Positions 9,835 through 36,972 of a DNA stretch of 38,114 nucleotides are shown here, in pieces. The DNA comes from Salinivirgaceae bacterium (GTDB lineage Bacteria > Bacteroidota > Bacteroidia > Bacteroidales > SZUA-534), in the NCBI GenBank assembly GCA_017551905.1, contig JAFZKK010000020.1, positions 1-38,114 of the forward strand. Direction: 5' to 3'. The position numbers were made by a program, and so were the translations under genes. Each line of letters opens with the position of its first letter. Position 1 is the stretch's first letter. The notes beneath the pieces are model-generated. The model was not told the origin of the DNA. It did no database searches and was given only the letters and a program-made list of their open reading frames with translations.

Positions 9835-12051
9835 ATGAAACCGTCACGCATCAACTTGAATATCTGTTTATTATGGCTTATCGCAAGTATACTGCCATTG
9901 GGATTGTCGGCGCAAGATAACGACGCCCGCGTGCAGCATATTTTAGACAGCGTGACCGACGTTGCCAACAACTCGCCCGACATAAACTTGCGCCTCGAAG
10001 CTCTCGACTTCATAACCATAAACCACCCAAATGTTGATTCGACGCTGAAATACTGCGAGATTGAAGCCAAACTTGCAAACGAGCATGGCGATTATTTCAA
10101 GTTGGTGTCAGCGCTCAGGGTTGCGGCATGGTGTCACTACTACAACTTCAACTACAATCTGGCTAACGAATACTATTTCAAGGCGTTGCACGTAAGCGAC
10201 TCGGTTCAGTACAAATTCGGAATAGGCATGTGCTACCATAGCATTGCCAACACCATGGCCATGATGAGCAACTTTGCCGAAGCCGACAAATACGACTACC
10301 TGGCCCTGCAGATTTTCTACGAGCTGAACGACACCGCCAACATAAGCGAGATACATAGGTCGCTTGGCCTCATGTATGCTGATTTTCAGCTGTATGGTAC
10401 CGCCGAGGAACATTTCAGCAAAGCCCTCGAACTCGACATCCTTCAAAACAACACAAAGAAAATTGCCGACGACTATCGGCATTTTGCGGTGACAAACCTT
10501 TGCCGATACGACGATTTGCTGCAAGACAGCCTGATTCTGAAATCGCGCGACTATGCGCTGAAAAGCTACCGTCTGATTAAAAAGACAGGCACCGACCTTG
10601 ATATGATGATAGCCTGCCTCACCCTGATGAGGATATACTACGAATATGCCGAAGACAACACCGCCCGACAGCAACAACTAATGGATAGTAGCCGGATGTT
10701 TTTCCGCAAAGGCCGTTCGATAGCCGCCAAAGACGGGTTCCTCGAAAAATCGTGCGACTTCAAGCTGCAAGAAGCACGTTACGCCATTTGTGACAAAAAC
10801 TACGGCACGGCGCTCCGGCTCATAAAAGAGACCGAGGAGATTATGCGCGAAGACTCGTCGGCATTACTATTTATGGACTTGTATTCAGCTTATAGTCACT
10901 ATTATACAGCCGCAGGCGATTACAAAAAAGCATACGAGTATCTATGTCGAAGAACCGACCTGAAAGATAAATTCATAAACAGCAACTCATCGCTTTACAC
11001 CTCAAAATCGAATGTGCAGAACGAGTTTGACGAGATGATGACAAAAATCAGTCTCGAAGACCAGAAGAAACGAATCCGCCAAATGGAGGAAGAGCGCCTA
11101 TGGCGGATAATCAGCGGCTCGGCAATCGGATTTATAATACTGACAATCATCATAATAATAACGCTACGCCGCGGACACCGCCACAAACTGGTGCTGAGCC
11201 GCATACTCGAGCAACGCAAGGAAGAAGTTGAAACCCAGCGGAATCAGCTTGAGACGATGAACAACCAGATGAAACAGAGCATCAACTTCGCACAACATAT
11301 ACAAAATTCAATACTTCCTCAAAATCAAGCTCTTGAGGAAATTTTTGGGGAGATGCTGATTCTATGGAAGCCGCTCGATATTGTGTCGGGCGATTTCTAC
11401 TGGGGCATACAGTCGGACGGTAACAAGCTGTTGGCGGTGGTCGACTGCACCGGCCACGGCGTCCCGGGCGCGTTCATGAGCATGCTTGGCGTGCGCTCGC
11501 TGGGCGACATTGTGGCCTCGGCAAAAACGGACGGCAGAGAGCTCAACGCCGCCGACATCCTCAACCGTATGCGCGACAATGTGATAACATCGCTCCACCA
11601 GACCGAGCAAAACAGCCTGACACTCGACGGAATGGACATGGCGCTGATAATACTGAACGACAGCACCTTAGAGATGCAATACGCCGGTGCGTTCCGTCCG
11701 CTTGTAATAATTCGTGGCGACGAGGCGATAACGGTAAAAGCCGACAAGATGCCCGTAAGCTTCATAAAAGCCGACGACCGCCCGTTCCGCAACAACGTGA
11801 TAGAGATGCAGAAAGGCGACACCGTATATATGTTCTCCGACGGCATCCCCGACCAATTCGGCATAAAAGACGACGGCAGCGAGGGCAAATTCACATCCAA
11901 GCGGCTTGTGAAACTTCTTCAGGAAATACACGACAAACCGTTTGCCGAACAGAAAAAACTCATCGAAGAAGAACTTGACAAGTGGCGGCAGAACGGCAAA
12001 TCGTCTTATCCGCAAACCGATGACATAGTTATATGCGGTTTCAAAATCTGA
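9835..12051 (+). CDS. TPR-membrane-SpoIIE-type serine phosphatase
   Basis: A 738-residue signalling protein. The signal peptide (to about LSAQD, residue 27) is followed by a helical repeat region of TPR type at about 30-400 in the periplasm. One transmembrane helix lies at about 424-443, then a coiled coil (444-480), and a C-terminal PP2C/SpoIIE phosphatase domain (482-738) on the cytoplasmic side. The metal-binding acidic residues expected for this family are present: D520 in SGDFYW, D537 in DCTGHGVPGAFMS, D669 in FSDG and D729/D730 in TDD. Such enzymes usually dephosphorylate an anti-sigma-antagonist protein in a partner-switching pathway; no such partner is in the window. A close paralogue follows after 13 bases. 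Confidence 0.88.
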   Translation: MKPSRINLNICLLWLIASILPLGLSAQDNDARVQHILDSVTDVANNSPDINLRLEALDFITINHPNVDSTLKYCEIEAKLANEHGDYFKLVSALRVAAWCHYYNFNYNLANEYYFKALHVSDSVQYKFGIGMCYHSIANTMAMMSNFAEADKYDYLALQIFYELNDTANISEIHRSLGLMYADFQLYGTAEEHFSKALELDILQNNTKKIADDYRHFAVTNLCRYDDLLQDSLILKSRDYALKSYRLIKKTGTDLDMMIACLTLMRIYYEYAEDNTARQQQLMDSSRMFFRKGRSIAAKDGFLEKSCDFKLQEARYAICDKNYGTALRLIKETEEIMREDSSALLFMDLYSAYSHYYTAAGDYKKAYEYLCRRTDLKDKFINSNSSLYTSKSNVQNEFDEMMTKISLEDQKKRIRQMEEERLWRIISGSAIGFIILTIIIIITLRRGHRHKLVLSRILEQRKEEVETQRNQLETMNNQMKQSINFAQHIQNSILPQNQALEEIFGEMLILWKPLDIVSGDFYWGIQSDGNKLLAVVDCTGHGVPGAFMSMLGVRSLGDIVASAKTDGRELNAADILNRMRDNVITSLHQTEQNSLTLDGMDMALIILNDSTLEMQYAGAFRPLVIIRGDEAITVKADKMPVSFIKADDRPFRNNVIEMQKGDTVYMFSDGIPDQFGIKDDGSEGKFTSKRLVKLLQEIHDKPFAEQKKLIEEELDKWRQNGKSSYPQTDDIVICGFKI

Positions 12052-12064
12052 AAAGCACAATGAA

Positions 12065-14269
12065 ATGAGAAAATTAGCATCCATATTATCGATATTAATA
12101 ATGCTCACGGCATTGTGCACAACACGAGCAACGGCGCAAGACATGTATGATATTGACAGCATCATGCGCGTTGTGGAAACCATGCCCGACGACACCAACA
12201 AGCTGACTGCACTTAATTTGATATGCCGCAATCACCCCAGCGCCGATTCGGTTTACAAATACTCAGTTGAGATGCTCAACCTTGCCAAAGCCCAACATTA
12301 TCCCCAATGGGAAGCCCGGGCTTACCACTTGCAGGCTTGGTACTTCTACAACATAAACGAACTTGAAAAGGCATTGGAAAACTACTACAAATCGCTCCGC
12401 TTAAACGACTCATTAGGCGTACAAAAAGAAACAGCCATGTGCTATACGGGGGCGGGCGAGTGTCTGAACGAATTAGGCGACAGGCAAACCGCCAACAAGT
12501 ATTTCAACATTGCGCTCGACATTTTGGCGGAAATCGGGGAAACAACCGCCTCCACCTATATTTTGCGTGACTTGGGACTCATGTGTATCACCACAAAACT
12601 GTACGACAACGCTCGCAAATACATATACGACGCTTTGAAAATCAACGTTCAAGAAGGCAACACCCGCGAAGTACTCATCGACCACCACTACTTGGGATAC
12701 ATAAACTGCATAGAATACGAATCAACCAAAAACGCACTGACCATACTTGACGCCCGCCGGCACAGCGACGTCGCTTACAACCTGTCACTCAAGCTTGGCA
12801 ACGACTACTACATCTGCCATACCGCGCAAGTCCAAATGCAAGTGTATCTGAACTATGCGACAGTTCTTGACGAACCGCTGCGCACAGTTATGCTCGACAG
12901 TAGCCTCCATTTCTACAACACCGCCGCCGAGCTTGCCAAGACACTTGGCTACTACGATGGCTATTACTATGATATCGAATTATGGAAAGCGAAATATTTG
13001 CTCATCACAAAATCGGTGAATAAGAGCCTTGAACTATTGCGCACTATTGAGAAAAAGGCAGAAAGCGAATCCGCAACTATCGCCTTCCCCGAAATCTACG
13101 GACTTTATACCCAATGTTATGTAGCCTTAGGCAACTACCATAAAGCGTTGAAATACAAGAAAAAACAGATACTGCGCCAGAACATTGACAACAACCTTGA
13201 CTTTACGTTAAGCTCGGTACGAATAAACGCAAAAGAGGAGTTCGAGCGCAACCTGCGCCAGCACCAGCTCGATGAGGAGCGCGAAGCCATAATCTACAGC
13301 CTGCAAAAACGGCACATGCGCATTGTCAGCTACATCATCTTCGGATTCTTGCTTGTCATAAGCGGGTTCGCGATAATAGTGTTCCGCAACTGGAAACGCG
13401 AGCACCGCACAAACATAGTGCTGATGCAGCAAAACAAGAAATTCATCGAACAGCGCGACAAACTTGCCGACATCAACTACCAGATGACCTCAAGCCTGAT
13501 GTACGCCCGCGGAATACAGACGGCCATTATGCCGACACCGGATAGTTTGAACACCATTTTCGGCAACAGCCTGATAATATGGAACCCGATGGAGATTGTC
13601 TCGGGCGACTTCTACTGGGCCAAACAGATAGGCCGGCACAAACTGATAGCCGCCGCCGACTGCACCGGACACGGTGTCCAAGGCGCATTCATGAGCATTC
13701 TGGGAATGACCGCTCTCAACGACATCACCTCAAGCGACAACTTCACAATTGGAGACAACACCGCCGCCGAGCTACTTAACATGCTCAGAATTAAGATGAT
13801 TGAGACACTCCACCAGCAAGACAAAGACTGGACCAACTCGAAACCCGAAGGCATGCACATCGCCCTATGCATATTGGACACCGAAACGCGCAAGATGCAA
13901 TATGCCGGCGCCTACCGTCCGCTCATCATCGCCCGCCGCGACGGACTAATAATCTACCAACCCGACAAGATGATTATCGGATACCAACCCAGGAAAAACG
14001 ACCCGTTCACCAACAACACAATTGAATTGTCGGAGGATGACACTATATATATGTATACCAACGGCATTGCCGAGCAACTCAACAACGACAAAAAAGGTGT
14101 CAAATTCACATCGATAAGGCTGAACAACCTAATTGAGGCCAACTACACCAAGCCATTTGCCGAGCAACGACAGATAATTGAAGACACCGTTAAGAAATGG
14201 CGCACTGAGTCGGGCGACATCAGCGAGCAAACCGACGACCAGTTGCTCATCGGATTCCGCATCGATTAA
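12065..14269 (+). CDS. Paralogous TPR-membrane-SpoIIE-like protein with altered metal site
   Basis: A 734-residue protein with the same plan as its upstream neighbour: signal peptide (ending near TRATAQ), TPR-like helices, one transmembrane helix (about 417-440), coiled coil and SpoIIE-like domain. D515 (SGDFYW), D532 (DCTGHGVQGAFMS) and D724/D725 (TDD) are kept. The fourth metal-ligand motif, normally [ST]DG, reads YTNG with Asn666 (codon AAC at 14060-14062). This should weaken or change metal binding, so the protein may be a slow phosphatase or a regulatory pseudo-enzyme. The gene begins 13 bases after the first one and shares its transcript; a terminator follows at 14290-14320. The pair looks like a tandem duplication with diverged sensor regions. 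Confidence 0.85.
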   Translation: MRKLASILSILIMLTALCTTRATAQDMYDIDSIMRVVETMPDDTNKLTALNLICRNHPSADSVYKYSVEMLNLAKAQHYPQWEARAYHLQAWYFYNINELEKALENYYKSLRLNDSLGVQKETAMCYTGAGECLNELGDRQTANKYFNIALDILAEIGETTASTYILRDLGLMCITTKLYDNARKYIYDALKINVQEGNTREVLIDHHYLGYINCIEYESTKNALTILDARRHSDVAYNLSLKLGNDYYICHTAQVQMQVYLNYATVLDEPLRTVMLDSSLHFYNTAAELAKTLGYYDGYYYDIELWKAKYLLITKSVNKSLELLRTIEKKAESESATIAFPEIYGLYTQCYVALGNYHKALKYKKKQILRQNIDNNLDFTLSSVRINAKEEFERNLRQHQLDEEREAIIYSLQKRHMRIVSYIIFGFLLVISGFAIIVFRNWKREHRTNIVLMQQNKKFIEQRDKLADINYQMTSSLMYARGIQTAIMPTPDSLNTIFGNSLIIWNPMEIVSGDFYWAKQIGRHKLIAAADCTGHGVQGAFMSILGMTALNDITSSDNFTIGDNTAAELLNMLRIKMIETLHQQDKDWTNSKPEGMHIALCILDTETRKMQYAGAYRPLIIARRDGLIIYQPDKMIIGYQPRKNDPFTNNTIELSEDDTIYMYTNGIAEQLNNDKKGVKFTSIRLNNLIEANYTKPFAEQRQIIEDTVKKWRTESGDISEQTDDQLLIGFRID

Positions 14270-14343: not shown

Positions 14344-15021
14344 TCACATATATTTCTGCACAAGTTTTACGGTCTTTTCCCTCGGGTAGTTGTTCTGACT
14401 TGCCACTCTAAAAATCAATTCAGCTTCTTCGTCTGTAATCTTACCATCGGCGGCAATCATGGCTGCGATGTTTTTAATTAGTTCGGGAATCTGAGAATCC
14501 TGAATGGCATATGTCAAATCGCCATCATCTATTTCCTTCTGAATCTCTTTGAGCTCATCGTCATTAAAGCACAATTTCTCTTTGAACACTCTTCTGAATA
14601 ATTGTTTTTCCTCCTTGCTCTCAGAGCCATCAATTGTTTCCGCAACCAACACTGCCTTCACAATCATTCGGTCTGAGATAGCTTTTTTACCAAAAAAGAC
14701 AGTTGTCAGAAGTTTCAGAATGGCTCCCATCACGACAAGAATGCCCAAAATTCCAAACACCCAGAACCAAACCAGATAGCTACCTGTTCTGGCGGTAGCC
14801 GGAGCTATCCAAAGCACACCTTCGGTAAGATAAGTGTGTATAATATTACCCTGAAGATTGATTCCGTGCCAAATACCATTATACCAGCAATAACTTTTTG
14901 CGCCATCGATTACACACAACCAACCAGCTATTAACCACAGTATAGTATAAGTGCCAATTATGGTCACCAATAATGCCAAGATTTCCTTAACCCAAAATTT
15001 TGTTACCGATTTCTTCTCCAT
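14344..15021 (-). CDS. Membrane protein with TerB-like C-terminal domain
   Basis: A 225-residue protein with two hydrophobic helices (about 12-34 and 82-106) around a short exported loop rich in Trp, Tyr and Gly, then a cytoplasmic helical domain from about 115. The C-terminal part (IAAMIAADGKITDEEAELIFRVAS) matches the acidic helical pattern of TerB/DjlA-type domains, in which a conserved AADG..T..E turn binds metal. TerB-like domains often sit in envelope-stress or tellurite-resistance contexts, but none of those genes is nearby. The gene stands alone between a terminator and the tadA gene. The TerB call is by eye. Confidence 0.6.
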   Translation of the reverse strand: MEKKSVTKFWVKEILALLVTIIGTYTILWLIAGWLCVIDGAKSYCWYNGIWHGINLQGNIIHTYLTEGVLWIAPATARTGSYLVWFWVFGILGILVVMGAILKLLTTVFFGKKAISDRMIVKAVLVAETIDGSESKEEKQLFRRVFKEKLCFNDDELKEIQKEIDDGDLTYAIQDSQIPELIKNIAAMIAADGKITDEEAELIFRVASQNNYPREKTVKLVQKYM

Positions 15022-15087
15022 TTCATTATTTTTTAGATAGTTAACAATTGTTTAATTAGCCGTGTAATATTATAAAAAATATATCAA

Positions 15088-15610: not shown

Positions 15611-15635
15611 GGACGCCATAATATGACGCCCCTAC
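15611..15635 (-). repeat. Solitary REP element (GTAG plus hairpin)
   Basis: On the - strand GTAG (complement of 15632-15635) is followed by a 21-base hairpin (15611-15631) with a 9-bp stem, G-T wobbles at positions 3 and 6 and an ATT loop. It has the same architecture as the REP units at the RAYT gene 2.3 kb away. It lies 13 bases after the aldo/keto reductase stop and may act as its terminator or mRNA stabiliser. Confidence 0.75.
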
Positions 15636-17674: not shown

Positions 17675-18313
17675 CTATCCATAAAAACAATCCGATTCCC
17701 ATTTGGCCGGATTTTGTTCGATGTATTCGGCAATAAGGTTCATCTCGTTTTGGTTGCGGACAATGTGGTCGTAATATCGCGGTTGCCACGCAAACGGGAT
17801 GTTTTGTTCGCGGGCGAAACGGGTTACGGCGGATTTGAATTGACCGATTATGTGCGACAATCGTCCGCAACGATTGGCCCGGCGTTGCATTTCCAAATTG
17901 ATTTCGTTCCCGGTTGATTGGAACAACGTAGGGACGTCACATTGTGGCGTCCGAATATTATCACAATACGCCAACCACGCATCAATATCATCGCGGCTGC
18001 CGCATTGCGACAGCCCTACGGCCGAATGTGGTAAATTGTTGGGTATATTTGGTTTATCACCATCAACAACGACAATCAAATGAATATGATTGGGCATTAT
18101 CACATATAATGGAACCTCAACATCCGCGTGTAATTCGCCGATTTTTTCAACACATTGTTTGGCACATTCCCCCACCACCGTCAATTGCGTTTGGCCGTTG
18201 CGCACGGTGCCGAAATAATGTTCGCGGTCGGCGGTGCAAATGGTGACAAAATATTCGGCGCCATTGTAATCGTGCCATTTGGCGCGGGGCGTGTGTCGGA
18301 CAGGTAACGGCAT
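17675..18313 (-). CDS. REP-associated tyrosine transposase (RAYT, Y1/HUH family)
   Basis: A 212-residue single-strand-specific HUH nuclease of the IS200-like Y1 superfamily. It has the N-terminal FVTICT strand, the HUH motif H76-I-H78 in MPNHIHLIV, the helix LSHIIGQFKSAVTR (152-165), and the catalytic tyrosine region RYYDHIVRN (Y180 or Y181) followed by EYIEQNPAKW. Proteins of this family cleave and bind REP hairpins preceded by GTAG, and GTAG-REPs lie around and within this gene. Residues 99-129, between the HUH strand and the next helix, are encoded by an inverted REP pair (17928-18019) that stays in frame and adds about 31 residues to a linker that varies in the family. No transposon ends flank the gene, consistent with a domesticated single-copy RAYT. 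Confidence 0.9.
   Translation of the reverse strand: MPLPVRHTPRAKWHDYNGAEYFVTICTADREHYFGTVRNGQTQLTVVGECAKQCVEKIGELHADVEVPLYVIMPNHIHLIVVVDGDKPNIPNNLPHSAVGLSQCGSRDDIDAWLAYCDNIRTPQCDVPTLFQSTGNEINLEMQRRANRCGRLSHIIGQFKSAVTRFAREQNIPFAWQPRYYDHIVRNQNEMNLIAEYIEQNPAKWESDCFYG
17928..18019. repeat. Inverted REP pair (BIME-like) inside the RAYT gene
   Basis: The left unit is GTAG (17928-17931) plus a 21-base hairpin (17932-17952; 9-bp stem, G-T wobble at position 6, ATT loop). The right unit is inverted: hairpin 17995-18015 (ATT loop) and CTAC at 18016-18019. A 42-base spacer lies between. Both units have the same geometry as the pairs at 18381 and 18488, and the whole lies within codons 99-129 of the transposase gene without a stop. 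Confidence 0.85.
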
Positions 18314-18341
18314 TGTTATTCGTTATTGTTTGCAACGATTT

Positions 18342-18349
18342 CAAAAATA
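18342..18349 (-). promoter_or_regulatory. Candidate -7 box for the RAYT gene
   Basis: TATTTTTG on the - strand matches TAnnTTTG exactly and lies 28 bases before the ATG. A TTTG lies upstream but about 24 bases away, wider than usual. This promoter sits between the gene and the REP pair at 18381-18460. Confidence 0.4.
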
Positions 18350-18380
18350 ATGAAATGCACGGTTTTTCACACACAAATTT

Positions 18381-18460
18381 GTAGGGACGTCACATCGTGG
18401 CGTCCGCATTTCTCGAATTACAAACGTATCATCACGGCTGCCGCGGTGCGACAGCCCTAC
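18381..18460. repeat. Inverted REP pair upstream of the RAYT gene
   Basis: GTAG (18381-18384) plus hairpin 18385-18405 (GGACGTCAC / GTGGCGTCC around ATC), then an inverted unit with hairpin 18436-18456 and CTAC 18457-18460. The spacer is 30 bases. This and the next pair repeat with a 107-base period and share flanking sequence (CAATGATT, ATCGATTT). Together they fill most of the 331-base gap between the RAYT gene and the hypothetical gene ending at 18645. Confidence 0.88.
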
Positions 18461-18487
18461 GGACGGCAATGATTCCAATCGATTTTT

Positions 18488-18567
18488 GTAGGGACGTCAC
18501 ATTGTGGCGTCCGCATCTCACGAATTACAAACGCATCATCGCGGCTGCCGCGGTGCGACAGCCCTAC
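18488..18567. repeat. Second inverted REP pair upstream of the RAYT gene
   Basis: GTAG (18488-18491) plus hairpin 18492-18512, a 30-base spacer, an inverted unit with hairpin 18543-18563 and CTAC 18564-18567. It is nearly identical to the pair at 18381-18460, including the spacer (CACGAATTACAAACGCATCA here). After it, 18568-18644 holds only a GC-rich CACCGCGCGCG and no recognised feature. Confidence 0.88.
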
Positions 18568-27885: not shown

Positions 27886-30800
27886 CTATGGCTTAACGTA
27901 AACCAATCTAATAGGATGATTATTTCCATTTGAATCTTGCCATGTTGCATTAGCTGCACTTGAGTCGCCATTCAAATAGATAATCGGAGTATTAGTATCA
28001 AGTTGTGTTACTTCAGATGTTTGCAATGGCCAGAAATAACCTACTTTATCAGGGTCATCTGCATAGATGGAATTTGCATCAGTTCTGATAAATATGTGAG
28101 GGTCGGAATATGTATAGGTTCCTACTGGCGGATTGCTTCCGTTTTCGTCGTTGAATTTTCCTTTGTCGCTTTCATCCTTTGCCTTATATACATTATAGCC
28201 ATTAACCATGTGATTACCATCATTATATGGCGAGAACTCCCAATAACAATTATTCATTAATTCTTGCCATTGTGTAGTTGTAGCTATAGACCAATTGTCG
28301 CCCCATGAATCAGCACCTGTGTATTCTTCAGAATTCCACGAACATTTTGTTCCTATCCGTGTCTTATCTTCGGCACCGAAGTTCATAGTTGCCCATTTGG
28401 TTTGACTATTCAAACCTAAATCAACATAATAGTGACCGTTTTCATCGCTGGTTAACCAGTTTGGAATGGCATTACGCACTACACGGAAACCTAAGTCATT
28501 ACTTGTTGAACATGGCGTAGATTCTGTACTGCAATCAATCAAATTACCAGAAACACCGCGTGTGACACGATAATCAGCTTCATAACCAATCCAATCGAAG
28601 CACCATTCAAGAACGTTACCACTCATATCGTATATGCTAAGTGTATTAGGACTTTTTGTTTTTATTTCATAGTTAACACTACCATATTCCACAACAGCGG
28701 CAACTTCAGACAAAGTGTTGCTTCCGCTATATGTGTAATTCCTGACATCTTCGTCAGTTAATCCGTTACCGCCACGGGCTATGTACTCCCACTCTGCGCT
28801 GGTTGGCAGACGGTAACCATTGGCGGCTTCATTTATGATAACATTTTCGTGTGATTCAGTACTTGGGTCACCCAAATTCAAATCCCATATATAATAATTT
28901 TGGTAATTCGCTCCGCAATATTTATCACCTTCTGACCGAATGCCTCTCCAATTCTTTGGGTCGGTTGTATAATCGCCGTTTTGGTCTATTATTGAATAAA
29001 CAGGAGTCAACCCTTCAGCAATACTACGCAGATTACAGTAAACAAGCGCATCGCACCAAGAGACATAATAAACTGAAGATGTGATTTTGTCATCACCTGT
29101 TTCTTCCGGAGTCTCGTCACCTCCATACATGCAATATGTTTCATACTCAGCTTGCGTAACCTCATGGTCGCATACATACAAATCGGTGATTTCAACATCT
29201 GCTTGGCCGTTAAATACTGGAGAATTTGTTATTGTAATAGTCTTAGGAACTTTCGCTCCTGCGACATATACAAAATCTTCTGGCACGGAGTTATTGCTAA
29301 TTTTCGCCAGCTTGCCATCTGCGCCAATCTGCCAATTAGTATTGTCATCCATAACAAATTTGCTGACTGGCAGCTCCTCAACACCAGACTCTTTTACAAG
29401 CACTTGTGTTTCCGGTGCGTATTGGCCTTCCGACAGGGTAATGGTTGTGATGTTATCGGTTGTGAGTTTGCCTACGGTTATTGTCTTGCCTTCGGCCAGA
29501 CTTACTTTACCAACCCAAGCGTCGTTCTTCATAGTAAATGTTCCCGAATTGGTTACACCGCTCTCGCCAGAAACCACAGCTCCACCGGCAAGAGTTACTT
29601 TGGCGCTTGAACCGACAGTGACACTACCGGTTATTTCCAGATTCTCAACGGTTACAGGCACTGTGGTGCTTACGCTGATACCGCTGTTAATCTTGTCTTT
29701 CGGCTTACCGGTTGAGTTATCAAGGCCATGAGCTCCGCGCAATGTGATTGACCGTGCCTTTATGGTGCCCGTAAGCTCCTGCTCGCTGTCAAGCTCGCCA
29801 TCAACAAAGATTGTGTAGCGTGTGTACTTATCAATCATCTTGCTTGCAGCCTTCTGAATGGTTGCAAACGGCTTGTTGCGTGTGCCATCGTTGCTGTCGC
29901 TGCCTTCAGGGCTTACATAGAATACCGTGGTGGTGATTGGAACCCAAACGGGGCGGATGTACGCACCATCGTATCGATTATTCACACTTCTATTCATTGG
30001 CGAAGATGTAGTTGTATATTGAACACAGAACACATAATTTTCACCTTGCTCAATTGATGATGCCCAATATTTAAAATCATAATTAGAATAATTAACAGTA
30101 AACGCCAAATCGCCATAACTACCGTGTTTTGGCCAATAATTAGAAGGATTACTACTACTTGCACCTATTTTACATTGATGCACACCAGCATCAGTAACAT
30201 CATCGCTCCAAAGTGTTACTGGTTTGTATACCAAATAGTAGTATCTATTGCCATCATCAGTAGCCACTCTTGTTGACACCCAATAACATTCATTCCACAA
30301 CTCCATCCAGTCTTCGTAGGTTGGAACACGCCAGTTGCCTCCCCACTGCGCGTATGCGGCATCATCTTCGAGTTCAAGGACATCGAGTCCGTCCTCATCA
30401 TTATATTTTGTGTATGTTTGGTTATATGTACTGAGCCACTCGCCTTTATATTTATAATTATCAAATGTAAATGAGCCTTTTGGTTCAGTCTCTCCCCATG
30501 CGTATTTATCGCCAATGCTCGGATATGCATTATATGCATTTTGACTTTGGTATGGAACGTAATAGTTAGAACTTTCCGGCCCCGTATATCCTAAATTCAC
30601 TGCAGCCCACTTTTTGCCACTTGTCAATCCAAGGTCCACCTTTGCATGGCCGTCTGACGAGCCATCATCAGCCACATCGGCAACAAGACGGACACATGCA
30701 CCGCTATTCTTGTCCAGTCGTCGCGGTTCTGCATATCGATAATCGAAATACAAGCACTTACCGCCATTGGCTGTCCAATAGTAAGCCCATGGTGGCAATC

Positions 30801-33800
30801 TTGTTCCATTATAATTATAATAACCATCAGCATCATAACCGCCTCCATTAATAACATATGGCACCCCATCACTTGTACCAGTCTGATAACTTCTGGCTCC
30901 TACAGCCGGCAGAAATACCGCGCCGTTCTCTTCCAAAAGCTGCCATTGAGTGGATGTATAAATATTGGCGTCATATCCTTGTTTTCCGTTGTAGGTCGGG
31001 TTTTCGCCAGGAGTGAATGTGATTCCAGCGGCATCCAATTCAGCTGAAGTCAATGTCCAGTTGTCGGGCAGCAACAAAATACCAACAACATGGTCTTTAC
31101 CATCAGAGCTGAAGTTTATTCTCACCATGCCGAATTTCTTTTTCGATTCGGTTTCGGTGCCACGCCCATATAACAGATACTGCCACTCTTCGGCGGTTAG
31201 TGTGCGCCACATTCCATGAGTATTGCCACCGTTTTCTATGGCATTGTACACACCCCAGTCCGCATTAGCGTTTGAGCCAGTCAGATTTGCATTCAGATAG
31301 TCATCATCATTGTTCGATAATGAGAATGGCTGATAGGCTGTCGCACCGCTGTTCCAACCGCTTGTTCCGTAGCCAAAACGGTCAACCCAGTCATTGCTTG
31401 TTGCCGAAGCTTTTCTGGCTGCTTCATAATCACCTTTGTCGGTTTGGTTATCAGCAAAACGCCAAGTGCCGGTGCTTGCCTGATATTTAAGGTTGCCCTG
31501 CGAGAAACGGATTGATTTACTGTCGGAAATCTTGAACGTTCCTGCTAATGCGCCTTGGTTTTGTGCTCCCGAAACACCTGCCTTTTGCAACTTGCCATCG
31601 TTGTCAACCATCCATTCCACATCTATTTCAGCACCATAACTATTTGTAACAGTCTGTTTCTCAATGGCAAATTTAGAAATATTGATTGTGGCACCATCCG
31701 ATATGTTAAGTATTTGTCTGTCTTTCTTGTATTCGTTTGGTTTAAATGTGGCGTTACATTCATAGGTTACGACATCGCCAGTAATGTTGACTACTGCATT
31801 TTTATCCAAGTAAATGATGTTTGAAGTGCCCGTATTGGCATAACCTTTCATATTGAATGTCGCGCCTTCTTTCACATACACTCCAGTACCTTGTATCGTA
31901 GCACCTGTTGGTTTTCTGTTATTATAGATGCCACCACCTTTCATATCAAGTGTGGCGCCTTTTGCCAAATAAACACCGCTGCCACCACTTTCCGAATAGT
32001 TGTCATTGATTTCGCAATTGCGGCCTTCTTCAATAGTAAACACTCCTCTATTGGCTACATACACACCGCCACCGTTCGTAGCGTTGCCGGCATCTTTATT
32101 GCCATTATATGCAACACCGGCATAGCCGCTCATTGTAAACGTGCCGCCAACATAAACACCTCCGCCAAACTGACTTGAATTGCTATATACATAGCCTTTG
32201 TATGACTCGTATGAGCCTGTGCCACTTAAAGCCGCCGAACCTCCATAGGCGATATACATGCCGCCACCATTTGTTTCGGCTGTGCAGTTTTGGATTTTGC
32301 CTTTGCCCACAGTCAGCGTTGCACCGTTAGCCACATAAACACCGCCACCGTTACCACCGGCAATGTTCGAACTAATGTAGCAGCCATCGTTGAATGTAAC
32401 GCTAACCCCATTATCCAAATAGATGGCGCCACCGTCTTGAATGGCTTCGTTATTTGATATTTCACTATAGTAATATTTCGAATCAATAGTGGCATTTCCT
32501 GTCAAATAAATACCGCCACCACGTTCGGCTTCGTTATTCTTTACTGAAGAATAACTGTCGGAAAGGGTTATTATTCCGTTATTGGTAGCATATACGCCAC
32601 CGCCGTAACTTGTAGCAAGGCAATTGCTAACAAATGCATAGTTGTAATATTTGTCAGTTACAAGAATAAGCTCGCCACCATCAACATATACACCGCCACC
32701 ATTTTCTGCAGAGAAATATTTGATTGAACTACCTTTTAATGTGAGTTTGCCGCCTTCTCCTATGTAGGCGCCGCCAACACTTGCCAGATTGTCTTCTGTG
32801 CCGCCCGAAATGGTGCAATTGTCGAGTATGAGGCTCTTTCCGGCAGGCACGTTAATCACGCGGTCGGCCGACACACGGCTCATCTGCAAATTGCTGATGG
32901 AAATGGGCACTGTGGTGTTAATGTCAATAACGTGTTGCGCCGTGGTGGTGCCTTCATATTGGCCGTTTTCACCAAAATTGATGATGATTGACGATGCCTT
33001 GCCGTCAATGTTTTGGCCAACAGCAATGTCGTCGGTATAATTGAGAACTTTGATTTTGTAAGTTTCTGAATCATTGTTCTTGGCCTCAATAAAACGTAGA
33101 GCTGCTGTAAGAGTTTTGAAAGGAGTCTTATCACCGTCACCAGTTTCATCATTGCCATTCTCGCCATCAACTATAATGGGCGGGATTTCTTTGAAATGAG
33201 CCTCAAAATACACTTTGTCAACGTTAGAGGCTTTTACCTGTAACGGATTGGCAGAATAGGAAACGCCGTAAGAATAAGAATAATACTCTTTTTTCAGCCA
33301 ATAATCGAACATCATTCCCTCGGGGGCTGTCAGGGCTTCCAATGTAATGGTGCTGCCAAAGGCTGCCGAATACTCAGCATTCGAATAACTACTAGTCTCA
33401 ACATAACTTGTAGTAGTATCTTCGCCGACAATAATCTTCACATAATATTTATCGTAGTCACTATTATTGTCATTGTAATAGGCTACGGGCGAGAATTTGC
33501 AACCAGGATATGCCTTTTCGCAATTCACAACAAAATCATAGCGTTCGTATTGTGTGGCGTTCCCGTCCCAGTCTTCGTTAATCAAGGCGAAAGTCATCTT
33601 ATAGTTGGTTAGCGAGACCATTGGCCATAAAGAGAATAGATAATCATCGCCATCATAATAATACCTTATCATCACAACGGCATCTTCACCCGAAGCGGAC
33701 TCTTGGGAATTGCTGTTGAGAAGAATTATGCCATCGGACTTGCAAGGGAGCAACAAGCCTTTCTCGTTTATTGTAGCCAAACGGCCGAAAGAAGAATTAT

Positions 33801-36800
33801 GATAGTGCCAATTACCATCATCATCTTGATAGCTAGTCCAACCACTTATACCAAAATAATTATAAGTATACTCATCAGCCTCTAATGTATAGTTTCCGTC
33901 ATATTCATTGCTTATAGAATTTTCTAATTCTTCAATTTCATCATTCCATTCAAAGCCTTCTCTTTTAGTTATGTCACTCAAATAGTACTTGAAGCGGTCA
34001 GTTTCCTCCAACTCCATGAACCGTCTGATTTCGCCACTTGCATCTATAAAATAGTTTGTGGTATCATTATTAACTATTTTAGGCGCAACCACAAATCTTC
34101 CGCAGTTATTGGCTACGTAATCAACACTGCCTGCATTTGCAAGAGCAATACGATTATAGTTTTCCGGAAGAATAACAGCAGCAGTGTCGAACGCCAAGTT
34201 GCCGGCGATGCTTATCACCGCACATTCTGATGAATAATTACCCGGCAGACATACATAATTGTTTGCGGCCACCTTAGCATAACCGCTCATGATAAAGGTG
34301 GCAAATTGCCTATCATCATTACCATCATAATAATCCCCCAAATAAACACCATCTCCGAAACTATTCGTCCCATTGTTGTCGCTCACAGTCTGATTGCCAC
34401 TAATTAAGCCACCGCTCATTGTCATAGTACCAACCGCATACACTCCACCTCCTCCAGGATTATTAGAGTTGATGGCCGTGTTGTTGCTGATTGTGCCGCT
34501 TTGCATCTGAACTTCTCCGCCTTCAGCAATAAAGAGTCCGCCTCCGAATGGAGCAGTATTGCCGGTTATGGTTGCGCTACCCTTCATAATCAATGTGGCG
34601 TCTTCATCCACATATACACCGCCTCCACAATTGTTTGCCATATTGTTGGTAATAACCACACCATTGCCGATGGTAACATTGCTGTATTCGCCAACATAAA
34701 GACCGCTACCATTATAAGAATAGCCATTGCTGATAGTCAGGTCTTCAATGGTAACAGGCACTTCGGTATATATATCTAAAACAGAGTATATGTCATCACT
34801 CGCTTCAGGCGCGCCATTTTCCGGTTTATACGCACCTTTCAATGTGCCACCATTTTTGCCTTTCAGTGTTATAGAAGTGGCGTTGACATCAATATCAGCA
34901 TCACTATCATAACCAAGATATTGTGCTCCTTGGAGTTCTCCCACAACACATATTGTCCAATCGTCTTTGTCAGGACTGTTGTTGATTCGTGTTACGGCAG
35001 ACACAATCGACGGCAGTGCCGCATTTATCGAATTGCCGGCATTGCCTTCTTGCCCTTCAGTCGATACATACAATACCGATTGTGAGAATTTGGCGGTCAG
35101 ACTCATGTCGCCAGCCAACGAATCAATTAAATAGTTGCCTGTGATTGTGCTATCGCCTACTATCCAACCTCTGAAATCATACCCGTCGTTGGCGTTAGCG
35201 GTGAGAATTAACTTTTGGCCTTTAATAGCGTCTGCGACAAAAACACCCGGTGTGCTATTATCAAAAACGACTGGAGTTCCATCGCTGTAAATGGCAGAAA
35301 TAGAACCCGCTCCATTAGGCATAGCAGTAACGGTCAGTTTGCAAGCATACATTGATGATATTTTACCCGACGCCGTCTGCAGAACGTTTATGTATGAATT
35401 CATGTTAATCAAGGTGCTATCCTGGTTAACCATCATCATTTCAAGGTTTCTCAACGCATCGACAATAGCAAAGTTTGAACGGCCAATTGTATTGTCGTTG
35501 ATATAGATGCGTGCGCTGTCGGAGTCAACTGTCAGGTAATTGTCTATGTCTTTGTGGCGGCTTATGCTTGCCACGGCAAACTTGGCTTTGGCGGCCTTGC
35601 CGGCTTCACTGTCATCGTCAATATAAACCAACGAGCCAAACCTGTCGATAATGAAATACGGTTCCGGCTCGGTTTTTCCGCGTCGTATGCTTGCCACGGC
35701 GAATGTGCTTTTGGCGGCTTTATCGTTTTCGTTTTCATCCAAATCGATATAGAATGTCGCCTGGTCGCCATCAACGTTCAGCACATCGTCGCCGCCCTTG
35801 CCCGAGCGTCCGGCTACGGCAAACTTGGCTTTGGCAGCCTTGTCGGCGTCAGTGTTTTTGTTAGCGTTAAAATCGACATAGACTGTCGAGCCGTCGCCAT
35901 CAATAGTGAACAGGTTCTCATCGCCCTTGTTGCGGCGTATGCTTGCCACTGCGAATTTGGCTTTGGCGGCTTTATCGCTTTGGTTGTCATCAACATAAAT
36001 AACCGAACCGCTGCCGTCAACGGTCATCAGGTTCTCATCGCCCTTGTTGCGACGAATGCTTGCCACTGCGAATTTTGCTTTGGCGGCTTTACCATTTTGG
36101 TTATAGTTATCGTTATCGTCAACATAGATTGTCGCGCCTTGGTCGTCAACAGTCATCAAGTTCTCATCGCCCTTGTTGCGACGTATGCTTGCCACTGCGA
36201 ATTTGGCTTTGGCAGCTTTACCATTTTGGTTATCGTCATCGTCAATATAGATTGTCGCACCTTGGTCGTCAATGGTCAGCAGGTTTTCATCGCCCTTGTT
36301 GCGACGAATGCTTGCCACTGCGAATTTGGCTTTGGCAGCTTTACCATTTTGGTTATCGTCATCGTCAATATAGATTGTCGCACCTTGGTTGTCAACGGTC
36401 AGCAAGTCTTCCTCGCCTTTGTTACGGCGAATGCTTGCCACTGCAAACTTGGCTTTGGCGGCCTTCGAGTCATCGTCATAATCTACAAACACTTTGACGC
36501 CCGTCTCATAAACAGCGAACAGCAGGTTGCCATCGTTGTCTTTAACTTGGAAGATAGGCTCGTCGGAAGCCACTTTGGGTTGGATGACTGTGGTTGTGCG
36601 GGATGCGTACATGGTGTACGGCACCGGCTGAATCTGCAGTGCGCCCATATTGGTGTAGGTGGAGCCGTCGGTGCTCACCTCAACTTGCATCATCACTTGC
36701 ATTGTCTCCCACGGGATGGCCGTAAAGCTGCCTTGCAGACCCGTTCCCTCGCCAACATTGACATTGACATTGCCGTAGGCGTTGGTGGTTGTCTGGTGCA

Positions 36801-36972
36801 CCTCTTTGTAATAGACACTGTCGGCCAGCATCACACTTAGGCGCAGACTCACGGCTTTGTTTTCGAGCACTTTGCCGCCGTCGCGGATAACAGCTTGATA
36901 GCTAAACGAATTCTGAGCAACAGCCGCAACAGCCGTCAACAACGCAACAAAACCCAACAATAATTTTTTCAT
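27886..36972 (-). CDS. Giant secreted mosaic surface protein (3028 residues)
   Basis: The signal peptide ends near AVAQ (residue 20). Segments, with approximate residues: 20-140, an N-terminal beta domain (SFSYQAVIRDGGKVLENKAV) usual in Bacteroidetes secreted repeat proteins; 168-505, eight full tandem repeats of about 40 residues plus one degenerate copy (AAKAKFAVASIRRNKG); 540-630, an InlB-type repeat (LTANANDGYDFRGWIV); 634-980 and 1265-1800, right-handed beta-helix regions with GGGVYV polymorphic repeats, separated by a unique domain; 1809-2104, a domain with RFSQGNLKYQ; 2109-2342, a FISUMP module (VDLGLTSGKKWAAVNLG); 2347-2560, a short third helix; 2562-2839, a formylglycine-enzyme/C-type-lectin-like domain (YRLPTSAEWEYIARGG, GFRVV); 2842-3028, a second FISUMP module. 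There is no T9SS sorting domain at the end. Probably an adhesin or surface-display protein; the ligand is unknown. Confidence 0.85.
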   Translation of the reverse strand: MKKLLLGFVALLTAVAAVAQNSFSYQAVIRDGGKVLENKAVSLRLSVMLADSVYYKEVHQTTTNAYGNVNVNVGEGTGLQGSFTAIPWETMQVMMQVEVSTDGSTYTNMGALQIQPVPYTMYASRTTTVIQPKVASDEPIFQVKDNDGNLLFAVYETGVKVFVDYDDDSKAAKAKFAVASIRRNKGEEDLLTVDNQGATIYIDDDDNQNGKAAKAKFAVASIRRNKGDENLLTIDDQGATIYIDDDDNQNGKAAKAKFAVASIRRNKGDENLMTVDDQGATIYVDDNDNYNQNGKAAKAKFAVASIRRNKGDENLMTVDGSGSVIYVDDNQSDKAAKAKFAVASIRRNKGDENLFTIDGDGSTVYVDFNANKNTDADKAAKAKFAVAGRSGKGGDDVLNVDGDQATFYIDLDENENDKAAKSTFAVASIRRGKTEPEPYFIIDRFGSLVYIDDDSEAGKAAKAKFAVASISRHKDIDNYLTVDSDSARIYINDNTIGRSNFAIVDALRNLEMMMVNQDSTLINMNSYINVLQTASGKISSMYACKLTVTAMPNGAGSISAIYSDGTPVVFDNSTPGVFVADAIKGQKLILTANANDGYDFRGWIVGDSTITGNYLIDSLAGDMSLTAKFSQSVLYVSTEGQEGNAGNSINAALPSIVSAVTRINNSPDKDDWTICVVGELQGAQYLGYDSDADIDVNATSITLKGKNGGTLKGAYKPENGAPEASDDIYSVLDIYTEVPVTIEDLTISNGYSYNGSGLYVGEYSNVTIGNGVVITNNMANNCGGGVYVDEDATLIMKGSATITGNTAPFGGGLFIAEGGEVQMQSGTISNNTAINSNNPGGGGVYAVGTMTMSGGLISGNQTVSDNNGTNSFGDGVYLGDYYDGNDDRQFATFIMSGYAKVAANNYVCLPGNYSSECAVISIAGNLAFDTAAVILPENYNRIALANAGSVDYVANNCGRFVVAPKIVNNDTTNYFIDASGEIRRFMELEETDRFKYYLSDITKREGFEWNDEIEELENSISNEYDGNYTLEADEYTYNYFGISGWTSYQDDDGNWHYHNSSFGRLATINEKGLLLPCKSDGIILLNSNSQESASGEDAVVMIRYYYDGDDYLFSLWPMVSLTNYKMTFALINEDWDGNATQYERYDFVVNCEKAYPGCKFSPVAYYNDNNSDYDKYYVKIIVGEDTTTSYVETSSYSNAEYSAAFGSTITLEALTAPEGMMFDYWLKKEYYSYSYGVSYSANPLQVKASNVDKVYFEAHFKEIPPIIVDGENGNDETGDGDKTPFKTLTAALRFIEAKNNDSETYKIKVLNYTDDIAVGQNIDGKASSIIINFGENGQYEGTTTAQHVIDINTTVPISISNLQMSRVSADRVINVPAGKSLILDNCTISGGTEDNLASVGGAYIGEGGKLTLKGSSIKYFSAENGGGVYVDGGELILVTDKYYNYAFVSNCLATSYGGGVYATNNGIITLSDSYSSVKNNEAERGGGIYLTGNATIDSKYYYSEISNNEAIQDGGAIYLDNGVSVTFNDGCYISSNIAGGNGGGVYVANGATLTVGKGKIQNCTAETNGGGMYIAYGGSAALSGTGSYESYKGYVYSNSSQFGGGVYVGGTFTMSGYAGVAYNGNKDAGNATNGGGVYVANRGVFTIEEGRNCEINDNYSESGGSGVYLAKGATLDMKGGGIYNNRKPTGATIQGTGVYVKEGATFNMKGYANTGTSNIIYLDKNAVVNITGDVVTYECNATFKPNEYKKDRQILNISDGATINISKFAIEKQTVTNSYGAEIDVEWMVDNDGKLQKAGVSGAQNQGALAGTFKISDSKSIRFSQGNLKYQASTGTWRFADNQTDKGDYEAARKASATSNDWVDRFGYGTSGWNSGATAYQPFSLSNNDDDYLNANLTGSNANADWGVYNAIENGGNTHGMWRTLTAEEWQYLLYGRGTETESKKKFGMVRINFSSDGKDHVVGILLLPDNWTLTSAELDAAGITFTPGENPTYNGKQGYDANIYTSTQWQLLEENGAVFLPAVGARSYQTGTSDGVPYVINGGGYDADGYYNYNGTRLPPWAYYWTANGGKCLYFDYRYAEPRRLDKNSGACVRLVADVADDGSSDGHAKVDLGLTSGKKWAAVNLGYTGPESSNYYVPYQSQNAYNAYPSIGDKYAWGETEPKGSFTFDNYKYKGEWLSTYNQTYTKYNDEDGLDVLELEDDAAYAQWGGNWRVPTYEDWMELWNECYWVSTRVATDDGNRYYYLVYKPVTLWSDDVTDAGVHQCKIGASSSNPSNYWPKHGSYGDLAFTVNYSNYDFKYWASSIEQGENYVFCVQYTTTSSPMNRSVNNRYDGAYIRPVWVPITTTVFYVSPEGSDSNDGTRNKPFATIQKAASKMIDKYTRYTIFVDGELDSEQELTGTIKARSITLRGAHGLDNSTGKPKDKINSGISVSTTVPVTVENLEITGSVTVGSSAKVTLAGGAVVSGESGVTNSGTFTMKNDAWVGKVSLAEGKTITVGKLTTDNITTITLSEGQYAPETQVLVKESGVEELPVSKFVMDDNTNWQIGADGKLAKISNNSVPEDFVYVAGAKVPKTITITNSPVFNGQADVEITDLYVCDHEVTQAEYETYCMYGGDETPEETGDDKITSSVYYVSWCDALVYCNLRSIAEGLTPVYSIIDQNGDYTTDPKNWRGIRSEGDKYCGANYQNYYIWDLNLGDPSTESHENVIINEAANGYRLPTSAEWEYIARGGNGLTDEDVRNYTYSGSNTLSEVAAVVEYGSVNYEIKTKSPNTLSIYDMSGNVLEWCFDWIGYEADYRVTRGVSGNLIDCSTESTPCSTSNDLGFRVVRNAIPNWLTSDENGHYYVDLGLNSQTKWATMNFGAEDKTRIGTKCSWNSEEYTGADSWGDNWSIATTTQWQELMNNCYWEFSPYNDGNHMVNGYNVYKAKDESDKGKFNDENGSNPPVGTYTYSDPHIFIRTDANSIYADDPDKVGYFWPLQTSEVTQLDTNTPIIYLNGDSSAANATWQDSNGNNHPIRLVYVKP
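35460..36470 (-). repeat. Tandem coding repeats of about 110-130 bases in the giant gene
   Basis: Eight copies plus one degenerate copy of a unit encoding K-AAKAKFAVASIRR-NKG-DENL-T-DD-GATIYIDD. Copies 1-5 are the most similar, and parts of copies 2 and 3 (about 36180-36390) are nearly identical in DNA over about 90 bases, which implies recent duplication. The variable-length Asp/Asn-rich spacers (DDDDNQNGK, DDNDNYNQNGK, DFNANKNTDADK) look like loops, perhaps metal binding. Confidence 0.9.

What the first reader, a model, noticed from the sequence alone, without database searches (positions are those of the whole stretch)
17675..18567. A REP pair sits in frame inside its own RAYT transposase gene, with two more pairs upstream
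The Y1/HUH transposase gene (17675-18313) carries an inverted pair of GTAG-hairpin units at 17928-18019 that encodes residues 99-129 without breaking the frame. Two near-identical pairs lie upstream at 18381-18460 and 18488-18567. All six hairpins share one geometry: GTAG, 9-bp stem, wobble at position 6, 3-base loop. Known RAYTs recognise GTAG-REPs. An element embedded in the gene that mobilises it could let the protein bind its own mRNA or gene, or mark a past insertion tolerated in a variable linker.
Basis: partly seen in the sequence, partly recalled or inferred. Interest (0 to 1): 0.75.

Follow-up and report, generated by a model that had tools for sequence, protein, structure and literature searches.

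The report
Transposase gene containing its own hairpins
A bacterial transposase gene carries, in a predicted floppy part of the protein it encodes, a near-copy of the paired DNA hairpins that lie next to the gene and that it is predicted to recognise; many relatives carry different hairpins in different reading frames at the same spot, so the DNA element rather than the peptide is likely what persists, an arrangement already reported for this transposase group in 2018.

Summary
Six GTAG hairpins of one geometry lie at the stated places; 200 of 200 shuffles had none. The inner pair encodes residues 99-129 of a RAYT, in a linker predicted to be disordered. It is no curiosity of this gene: 85 of 119 parsed relatives carry a GTAG hairpin in the same gap. 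In-frame REPs inside RAYT genes were reported in 2018 for TnpAREP subclass 2.4 (PMC6006769), so the base phenomenon is known. What I add: in-gene REPs match the gene's own flanking REPs (23 of 41 exact; permuted mean distance five times larger); relatives read them in two frames, never the one with an in-frame TAG; one orthologous locus pair differs in REP type inside and just downstream of the gene together. Peptide-level function is therefore unlikely. I favour a self-carried cognate REP, placed by RAYT-type ssDNA transposition and kept as DNA; whether it is merely tolerated or useful is open. REPs also lie in frame in other genes of this genome, notably eight secretion-tail-like domains.

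The parts
17675..18313 (-). RAYT / TnpAREP-like Y1 HUH transposase gene, 212 aa
   Evidence: PF01797 26.1 bits (cut-off 23); NF047646 54.9 bits, below its cut-off of 80; PDB 4er8 by sequence E 1.4e-4 and by fold E 3.5e-6
18080..18088 (-). HUH motif His76-Ile77-His78
   Evidence: H76 and H78 invariant in 35 aligned homologues
17723..17725 (-). predicted catalytic Tyr197 (YIEQNP)
   Evidence: Y197, I198 and N201 invariant in 35 aligned homologues; role by analogy with E. coli TnpAREP (passages of PMC6006769)
17995..18019 (-). in-gene REP unit B, GTAGGGCTGTCGCAATGCGGCAGCC, residues 99-107
17928..17952 (+). in-gene REP unit A, GTAGGGACGTCACATTGTGGCGTCC, residues 121-129, inverted to unit B
17928..18019 (-). 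92-nt inverted REP pair (REPIN-like) inside the gene, in the HUH-to-helix linker
18381..18460 (.). upstream REP pair 1 (units 18381-18405 + and 18436-18460 -)
18488..18567 (.). upstream REP pair 2 (units 18488-18512 + and 18543-18567 -); unit A identical to the in-gene unit A
15611..15635 (-). single related REP, GTAGGGGCGTCATATTATGGCGTCC, 2 mismatches to the search pattern, outside the RAYT locus

Best explanation
The RAYT gene holds, in frame between its HUH motif and its predicted catalytic tyrosine, an inverted pair of GTAG hairpins that nearly repeats the pairs beside the gene, and this copy was likely placed there by RAYT-type single-strand transposition and is predicted to be tolerated because that linker looks disordered. 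Shown: in 33 of the 41 loci with both, the in-gene hairpins are within two edits of one of the gene's own flanking hairpins; hairpin types differ between RAYT lineages; they are read in two reading frames giving unrelated peptides. So what is kept is likely the DNA (or RNA) hairpin and not the peptide. Inferred: the RAYT recognises the in-gene copy as it does its other REPs; the copy is exchanged with or re-seeded from the cognate REP population, so that inside and outside change together; insertions in the folded core are purged while the linker accepts stop-free frames. Also inferred, and less sure: the in-gene copy is retained more than chance because it keeps a cognate REP physically joined to its transposase when the gene is transferred.
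For: 85 of 119 RAYT genes have at least one GTAG hairpin in the HUH-to-W gap; 110 units in 28,353 nt of gap against 9 in 44,625 nt of core; linkers recoded at random with synonymous codons keep a hairpin in 9 of 5,950 trials. With the linker cut tighter and gene starts approximated: 6.06 units per kb against 2.14 and 3.36 in the 100 nt up- and downstream and 0.09-0.13 in the core; of 119 loci 40 have linker and flank REPs (within 600 nt), 45 linker only, 16 flank only, 18 neither. Cognate match: 41 of 120 rows had both; best linker-to-own-flank edit distance 1.51 on average, 23 of 41 exact, 33 within 2, against 7.53 with flanks permuted (lowest of 2,000 permutations 6.10). Own genome: the full-length paralogues on C89 and C104 each carry a linker REP identical to one in their own flank, and the types differ between paralogues. 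Genome level: GTAGAGACAGGGCATGCCCTGTCT is in 3 of 36 genomes, the three in which I found it in a RAYT linker. Frames: of 73 units in gene orientation 51 are in phase 0, 22 in phase 1, 0 in phase 2, where GTAG puts TAG in frame (palindromic units are counted on both strands); the frame changes at least 13 times on a core-only tree. Natural pair L095/L099: same site after an hsdR-like and before an hsdM-like gene, core 91% identical in DNA, dS 0.42, yet linker REP type, number and frame differ, and the sequence just downstream of each gene shows a hairpin of that gene's own linker type (GGACAAGGCATGCCTTGTCC against GGACGTTGCATGCAACGACC). Identical linker REPs are shared by 21 of 205 pairs whose cores are 65-70% identical in DNA, while 0.025% of 24-nt core windows are identical there. 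Covariation in 12 of the 20 distinct 25-nt units: 5 of 9 pairs changed on both sides, covariation score reached by 0 of 500 shuffles. Core dN/dS is 0.06-0.25 in pairs with at least 86% identical core protein, so the enzyme is under purifying selection.
Against: No binding, cleavage or transposition was tested. The linker copy can be the only exact copy in a genome (G008, G051 and the truncated C105 gene of G000), which does not fit a copy constantly refreshed from a live population. GTAGGGACGCGATTYATCGCGTCC is dispersed in all 11 genomes of the genus although I found it in a RAYT linker in only two of them. 8 of 41 loci have linker and flank REPs more than 2 edits apart, L095 among them, because its GTAG-footed flank hairpin is of another type. 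The downstream hairpins of L095 and L099 have GTAC, not GTAG, feet; the one in L099 has one mispaired position, was not listed by the mismatch-free finder, and was read by eye from the printed sequence. 34 of 119 relatives have no linker hairpin, 16 of these with flank REPs, so it is not required. REPs also sit in frame in other genes, so tolerance alone may suffice. The units came from a hairpin search, so their pairing is partly built in, and one of its five measures (further pair types, 7 against a shuffled mean of 9.5) is not raised. Only 3 of 19 pairs with cores 80-90% identical share an identical linker unit. The loci are not independent and the tree is poorly resolved (61 of 115 inner branches open). 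Linker density is inflated because each insertion both lengthens and defines the linker.
Confidence: 0.6

Rival explanations
1. Neutral by-product: REPs accumulate around RAYT genes because RAYT acts near its own locus; insertions in the core are lost and those in the disordered linker drift along with no use.
For: Core almost free of REPs, flanks rich, density falling with distance; linker predicted disordered; REPs also in frame in unrelated genes; 34 of 119 relatives lack them. [quoted passage not shown]
Against: The linker is denser than the freely permissive intergenic flanks (6.06 against at most 3.36 per kb) and 45 of 119 loci keep a REP in the linker but none within 600 nt outside; identical linker units recur where cores are only 65-70% identical in DNA (21 of 205 pairs).
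Confidence: 0.4
2. Autoregulation: the hairpins in the mRNA or gene are bound by the RAYT protein and limit its own expression.
For: TnpAREP proteins bind GTAG hairpins as ssDNA (PMC8266576, passages); compensated changes in the stem (with the selection caveat given above); in-gene hairpins match the flank type.
Against: The binding described in the passages seen is to ssDNA; I saw no RNA binding there. In the in-gene pair the unit B hairpin is outcompeted in the isolated ssDNA fold (no RNA fold was run). Number, orientation and place of units vary widely and 34 of 119 relatives have none.
Confidence: 0.12
3. The REP-encoded peptide has a protein-level role (for example in REP recognition), and DNA identity is secondary.
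For: The insert lies directly after the HUH strand and correlates with flank REP type.
Against: REPs of one class are read in two frames giving unrelated peptides (for example VETCHGAS in L026 against CRDVARYVS in L024); length and composition vary; model disordered.
Confidence: 0.05
4. Linker swaps come from recombination between different RAYT genes, carrying the linker REP as passenger, with no role of RAYT itself.
For: Related RAYTs coexist in one genome; linker replacement can be wholesale.
Against: In L095/L099 the 200-nt windows from 2.5 kb before to 1.9 kb after the gene are 78-94% identical apart from the linker window (68%, 120 of 200 positions aligned), so a donor tract would have had to end at the linker; the downstream hairpin differs as well.
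Confidence: 0.15

Closest known systems
TnpAREP subclass 2.4 with REPs inserted in the tnpAREP gene (Quentin et al. 2018, PMC6006769; abstract, passages, outline and section 31 seen; supplement not seen)
   Different: The passages read do not report reading-frame switching, the match of linker to own flank REPs, or a concerted switch at one orthologous locus; the window protein has YIEQNP where the subclass consensus is YIxNNP
REPIN / BIME (inverted REP doublets; Bertels and Rainey 2011, PMC3116915, search listing only)
   Same: Two REPs inverted with their GTAG feet outwards, several copies beside a RAYT
   Different: One copy is inside the coding sequence of the RAYT
Intragenic GTAG/CGTC REPs and Rickettsia RPE elements (Di Nocera et al. 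2013, PMC3733652, abstract and passages seen)
   Same: Palindromic elements inside ORFs; dimers or groups of them encode 20 to 30 residues
   Different: Those lie in varied host genes; here the host gene is the transposase associated with the element, at one recurrent site
E. coli TnpAREP and its REPs (PDB 4ER8; PMC8266576 passages)
   Same: Fold and HUH/Y core, GTAG guide plus hairpin
   Different: In the alignment about 12 residues of 4er8 lie where the window protein has 78 (86 to 165), the REP-bearing linker included

Membership tests
RAYT / TnpAREP (Y1 HUH, class 2) | HuH motif and one Tyr with downstream NP (Y---NP) | tested here: met
   NHIH 75-78, Y197...N201-P202 in the window protein; H76, H78, Y197 and N201 invariant in A1; definition
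RAYT / TnpAREP (Y1 HUH, class 2) | Profile match to REP-associated tyrosine transposase | tested here: inconclusive
   NF047646 54.9 bits, E 8.5e-15, below its cut-off of 80; PF01797 26.1 bits, above its cut-off of 23
RAYT / TnpAREP (Y1 HUH, class 2) | Fold of TnpAREP | tested here: met
   Foldseek best match 4er8_A, E 3.5e-6, probability 1.00, TM-score 0.42 (query) and 0.52 (target)
RAYT / TnpAREP (Y1 HUH, class 2) | Binds and cleaves its REPs as ssDNA | not testable with these tools
   needs protein
TnpAREP subclass 2.4 | Consensus NH[IFV]H and WQ | tested here: met
   NHIH, W176-Q177 (consensus as printed)
TnpAREP subclass 2.4 | Consensus YIxNNP | tested here: inconclusive
   YIEQNP, one position off; L095 and L099 have YIKNNP, the own-genome paralogues YIENNV and YIQNNV
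TnpAREP subclass 2.4 | Variable insertion between the HuH strand and alpha-C, made of in-frame REPs | tested here: met
TnpAREP subclass 2.4 | GT[AG]G REPs in the flanks | tested here: met
   two pairs upstream
TnpAREP subclass 2.4 | Score against the authors' subclass profiles | not tested
REPIN | Inverted REP doublet in several copies | tested here: met
   three copies, 92, 80 and 80 nt
Autoregulatory RNA element | Hairpins needed for regulation by the encoded protein | not testable with these tools
   no expression data

The most novel reading that the evidence does not exclude
RAYT genes of this group carry their cognate REP inside the coding sequence as a self-held identity tag: the gene is its own transfer unit of enzyme plus element, the linker accepts any stop-free frame, and in-gene and outside REPs are swapped together when specificity changes, so that the coding sequence of a transposase archives the history of its target.
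Probability: 0.28. Interest if true: 0.75.

Novelty: new member of a known kind. Interest (0 to 1): 0.5.

Why it matters
How REPs and their transposases stay matched is an open question. If the in-gene element is the cognate one, each RAYT sequence states its likely target, so specificity could be read from the gene alone, even on short metagenome contigs. Orthologous pairs such as L095/L099, with 92% identical core proteins but different REPs, give ready-made natural variants for finding the residues that set REP specificity.

Tried and rejected
Peptide function of residues 99-129: disfavoured because relatives read the element in two frames. Chance hairpins or a by-product of the amino-acid sequence: rejected by shuffles and random synonymous recoding. 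REPs confined to the RAYT: rejected, since other genes of the genome carry them in frame. A live dispersed family behind every linker REP: not upheld, since searches showed genomes where the linker copy is the only exact one and one REP type spread in genomes where I found no RAYT carrying it. RNA-family, tandem-repeat and promoter scans were not run. One unexplained point: units opposite to the gene are never in phase 0 (0 of 71); for double-foot palindromes this is the same frame as the TAG frame, but single-foot units could use it.

Dropped rows and limits: 12 of 133 loci gave no parsable RAYT; three parses were duplicates of the same gene and one 707-residue false parse in L063 was dropped, leaving 119; 118 of these entered the tree. 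still held the false parse (120 rows) and also took GTGG feet; one search took GTAG only (87 and 85 genes with a linker unit). Hairpins with other feet or more than one mismatch are missed, so the 34 genes without a unit may include decayed ones. One search used 12 of 20 distinct 25-nt units, chosen for like stems. Searches assumed the REP at position 1501 and mis-placed L183, L184, L186 and L187; one search replaces them, and its 80 places are those in fetched loci, not a full census. One search's 25 ORF hits include short ORFs that may be spurious. The middle's output was cut; one search reprinted the linkers. The pattern found a tail in 14 of 46 loci scanned, so its misses are not counted as empty sites.

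Full report
Observation. The window is one whole contig (G000:C24) of a 3.15-Mb, 161-contig genome. The ORF 17675-18313 on the minus strand encodes 212 residues. Exactly six hairpins of the stated geometry exist in the window and 200 of 200 dinucleotide shuffles have none. One inverted pair, 92 nt, lies in frame and gives residues 99-129; two 80-nt pairs lie upstream, within a 107-nt direct repeat that is 90% identical. The exact units occur only at this locus in the genome; related units occur elsewhere.

What the gene is. It matches PF01797 just above its cut-off, NF047646 REP_Tyr_transpos below its cut-off, and TnpAREP 4er8 by sequence and by fold. HUH, the WQ dipeptide and the Tyr-x-x-x-Asn-Pro motif are present. 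The AlphaFold model has confidence about 90 or more over most of the core and below 50 at 91-107 and 119-138, which hold both REP-encoded stretches.

Not a one-off. The 120 listed homologues out of 2,898 hits vary strongly in this linker, which in many of them reads, by eye, as translated REPs of several kinds (VGLSYYGSR, RLPQCDSPT, DAARDVPT, VETPYYDVST and others). From I took 133 loci; 121 were parsed, giving 119 distinct RAYT genes after duplicates and one false parse were dropped. 85 of 119 have a GTAG hairpin in the HUH-to-W gap. The gap holds 110 units in 28,353 nt, the core 9 in 44,625 nt. Recoding the linkers at random with synonymous codons leaves a hairpin in 9 of 5,950 trials, so the amino acids do not force it.

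DNA, not peptide. Of 73 units in gene orientation, 51 are in phase 0, 22 in phase 1 and none in phase 2, where GTAG would place TAG in frame (palindromic units count on both strands). In the own genome the window RAYT reads its REP in phase 0 and the C89 paralogue in phase 1. On a tree built without the linker the frame changes at least 13 times and presence of a hairpin at least 21 times (61 of 115 inner branches are unresolved, so these are rough). Twelve distinct 25-nt units, chosen from 20, show compensated changes at 5 of 9 pairs, with a covariation score reached by 0 of 500 shuffles; because the units were found by a hairpin search this is supporting, not independent, evidence, and one measure (further pair types) was not raised.

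Inside matches outside. In the 41 of 120 rows with REPs both in the linker and within 1.5 kb, the best linker-to-own-flank edit distance averages 1.51 (23 exact, 33 within 2, 8 farther), against 7.53 for permuted flanks with a minimum of 6.10 in 2,000 permutations. At genome level one palindromic REP occurs in 3 of 36 genomes, those in which I found it in a RAYT linker. Three further searches were mixed: GTAGAGACAAGGCATGCCTTGTCT in 4 of 36 genomes, two of them with it in the linker, in G051 as the only copy; GTAGGGACGTCGCGTGCGGCGTCC in 6 of 36, the linker being the only copy in G008 and, in a truncated gene, in G000; GTAGGGACGCGATTYATCGCGTCC in all 11 genomes of the genus, most copies (13 and 8) in the two whose linkers carry it, 1 to 7 in the rest.

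A natural experiment. L095 and L099 are the same RAYT at the same site between hsdR-like and hsdM-like genes (Pfam run on the L095 neighbours only; L099 has ORFs of like size there). Their cores are 92% identical in protein and 91% in DNA (dS 0.42). In 200-nt windows from 2.5 kb before to 1.9 kb after, identity is 78-94% except in the linker window (68%, with 120 of 200 positions aligned). L095 has two palindromic units in phase 0 plus tandem partial copies; L099 has one unit of another type in phase 1. Just downstream of each gene lies a hairpin of that gene's own linker type: GGACAAGGCATGCCTTGTCC in L095, GGACGTTGCATGCAACGACC in L099. Both have GTAC instead of GTAG feet; the L099 one has one mispaired position and was read by eye. 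Inside and outside thus differ in concert.

Tolerated or kept? Linker density (6.06 per kb) exceeds that of the nearest flanks (2.14 upstream, 3.36 downstream), and 45 of 119 loci have a REP in the linker but none within 600 nt outside. Identical linker units are shared by 7 of 2,694, 7 of 498, 21 of 205, 5 of 42, 2 of 15, 3 of 19 and 10 of 13 pairs in rising bands of core DNA identity (under 60% to over 90%); in the 65-70% band 0.025% of 24-nt core windows are identical. This leans towards retention or re-seeding, but each insertion also lengthens the linker, and REPs in other genes show that plain tolerance happens. I therefore put cognate self-carriage first and neutral tolerance second.

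Literature. Quentin et al. [quoted passage not shown] section 31; supplement not seen). Di Nocera et al. 2013 (PMC3733652, abstract and passages) list REPs in other genes. PMC8266576 (passages) describes TnpAREP cutting ssDNA REPs. The listings held no other paper that I could recognise, from its title and abstract start, as treating REPs inside RAYT genes, frame switching or co-switching; most subscription papers are not in that library.

Verdict. The frame switching, the match to flanking REPs and the concerted difference at one locus are additions that make the origin of REP specificity testable.

Noticed in passing
G000: C22:15900, C48:5701, C49:3357, C97:29848, C110:4516, C130:55131, C136:30898, C136:34111 (L165, L178, L180, L207, L213, L217, L218; also L263-L270): Eight genes carry a REP in frame at the same turn of a secretion-tail-like C-terminal domain (VYxxMGxLV[GRDVARNVS]T...SGVYIVKxG), with three different REP types at that one spot; L256 has a shorter site without it and L255 and L258 look like decayed copies. 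The Por_Secre_tail model (PF18962) gives 40 hits at E up to 0.01 in this genome and reaches two of the eight (C130 and C136:34056), below its cut-off, so the name is an inference.
   Followed up: partly
L021 (G000:C141:12248-12315): A REP pair lies in frame near the C-terminus of a DNA methylase (PF01555), encoding VGLSYNGSR...RLSHCGSPT.
   Followed up: partly
L202 (G000:C77:7365) and L024:1-1098: A REP encodes ETLRATSLQ in a 765-residue ORF without Pfam match; the gene before the C89 RAYT has very similar flanking residues and VEPLRATSLQ there, a possible decayed copy.
   Followed up: no
L095, L034 and some homologues: Linker REPs show tandem partial duplications (for example 18-nt repeats before the full hairpin in L095), so copy number also changes by slippage-like events.
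   Followed up: no
G008:C1:70605, G051:C33:11422, G000:C105:46351: The linker REP is the only exact copy in the genome.
   Followed up: partly
window 27886-36972: A 3,028-residue ORF with about eight repeats spaced 117-132 nt apart at 35492-36493.
   Followed up: no
window 9835-14269: Two adjacent ORFs of 738 and 734 residues share a 170-nt repeat at 73% identity, possibly a tandem duplication.
   Followed up: no
window 15019-15042 and 18334-18357: A 24-nt inverted repeat, 88% complementary; its second arm lies just upstream of the RAYT start.
   Followed up: no
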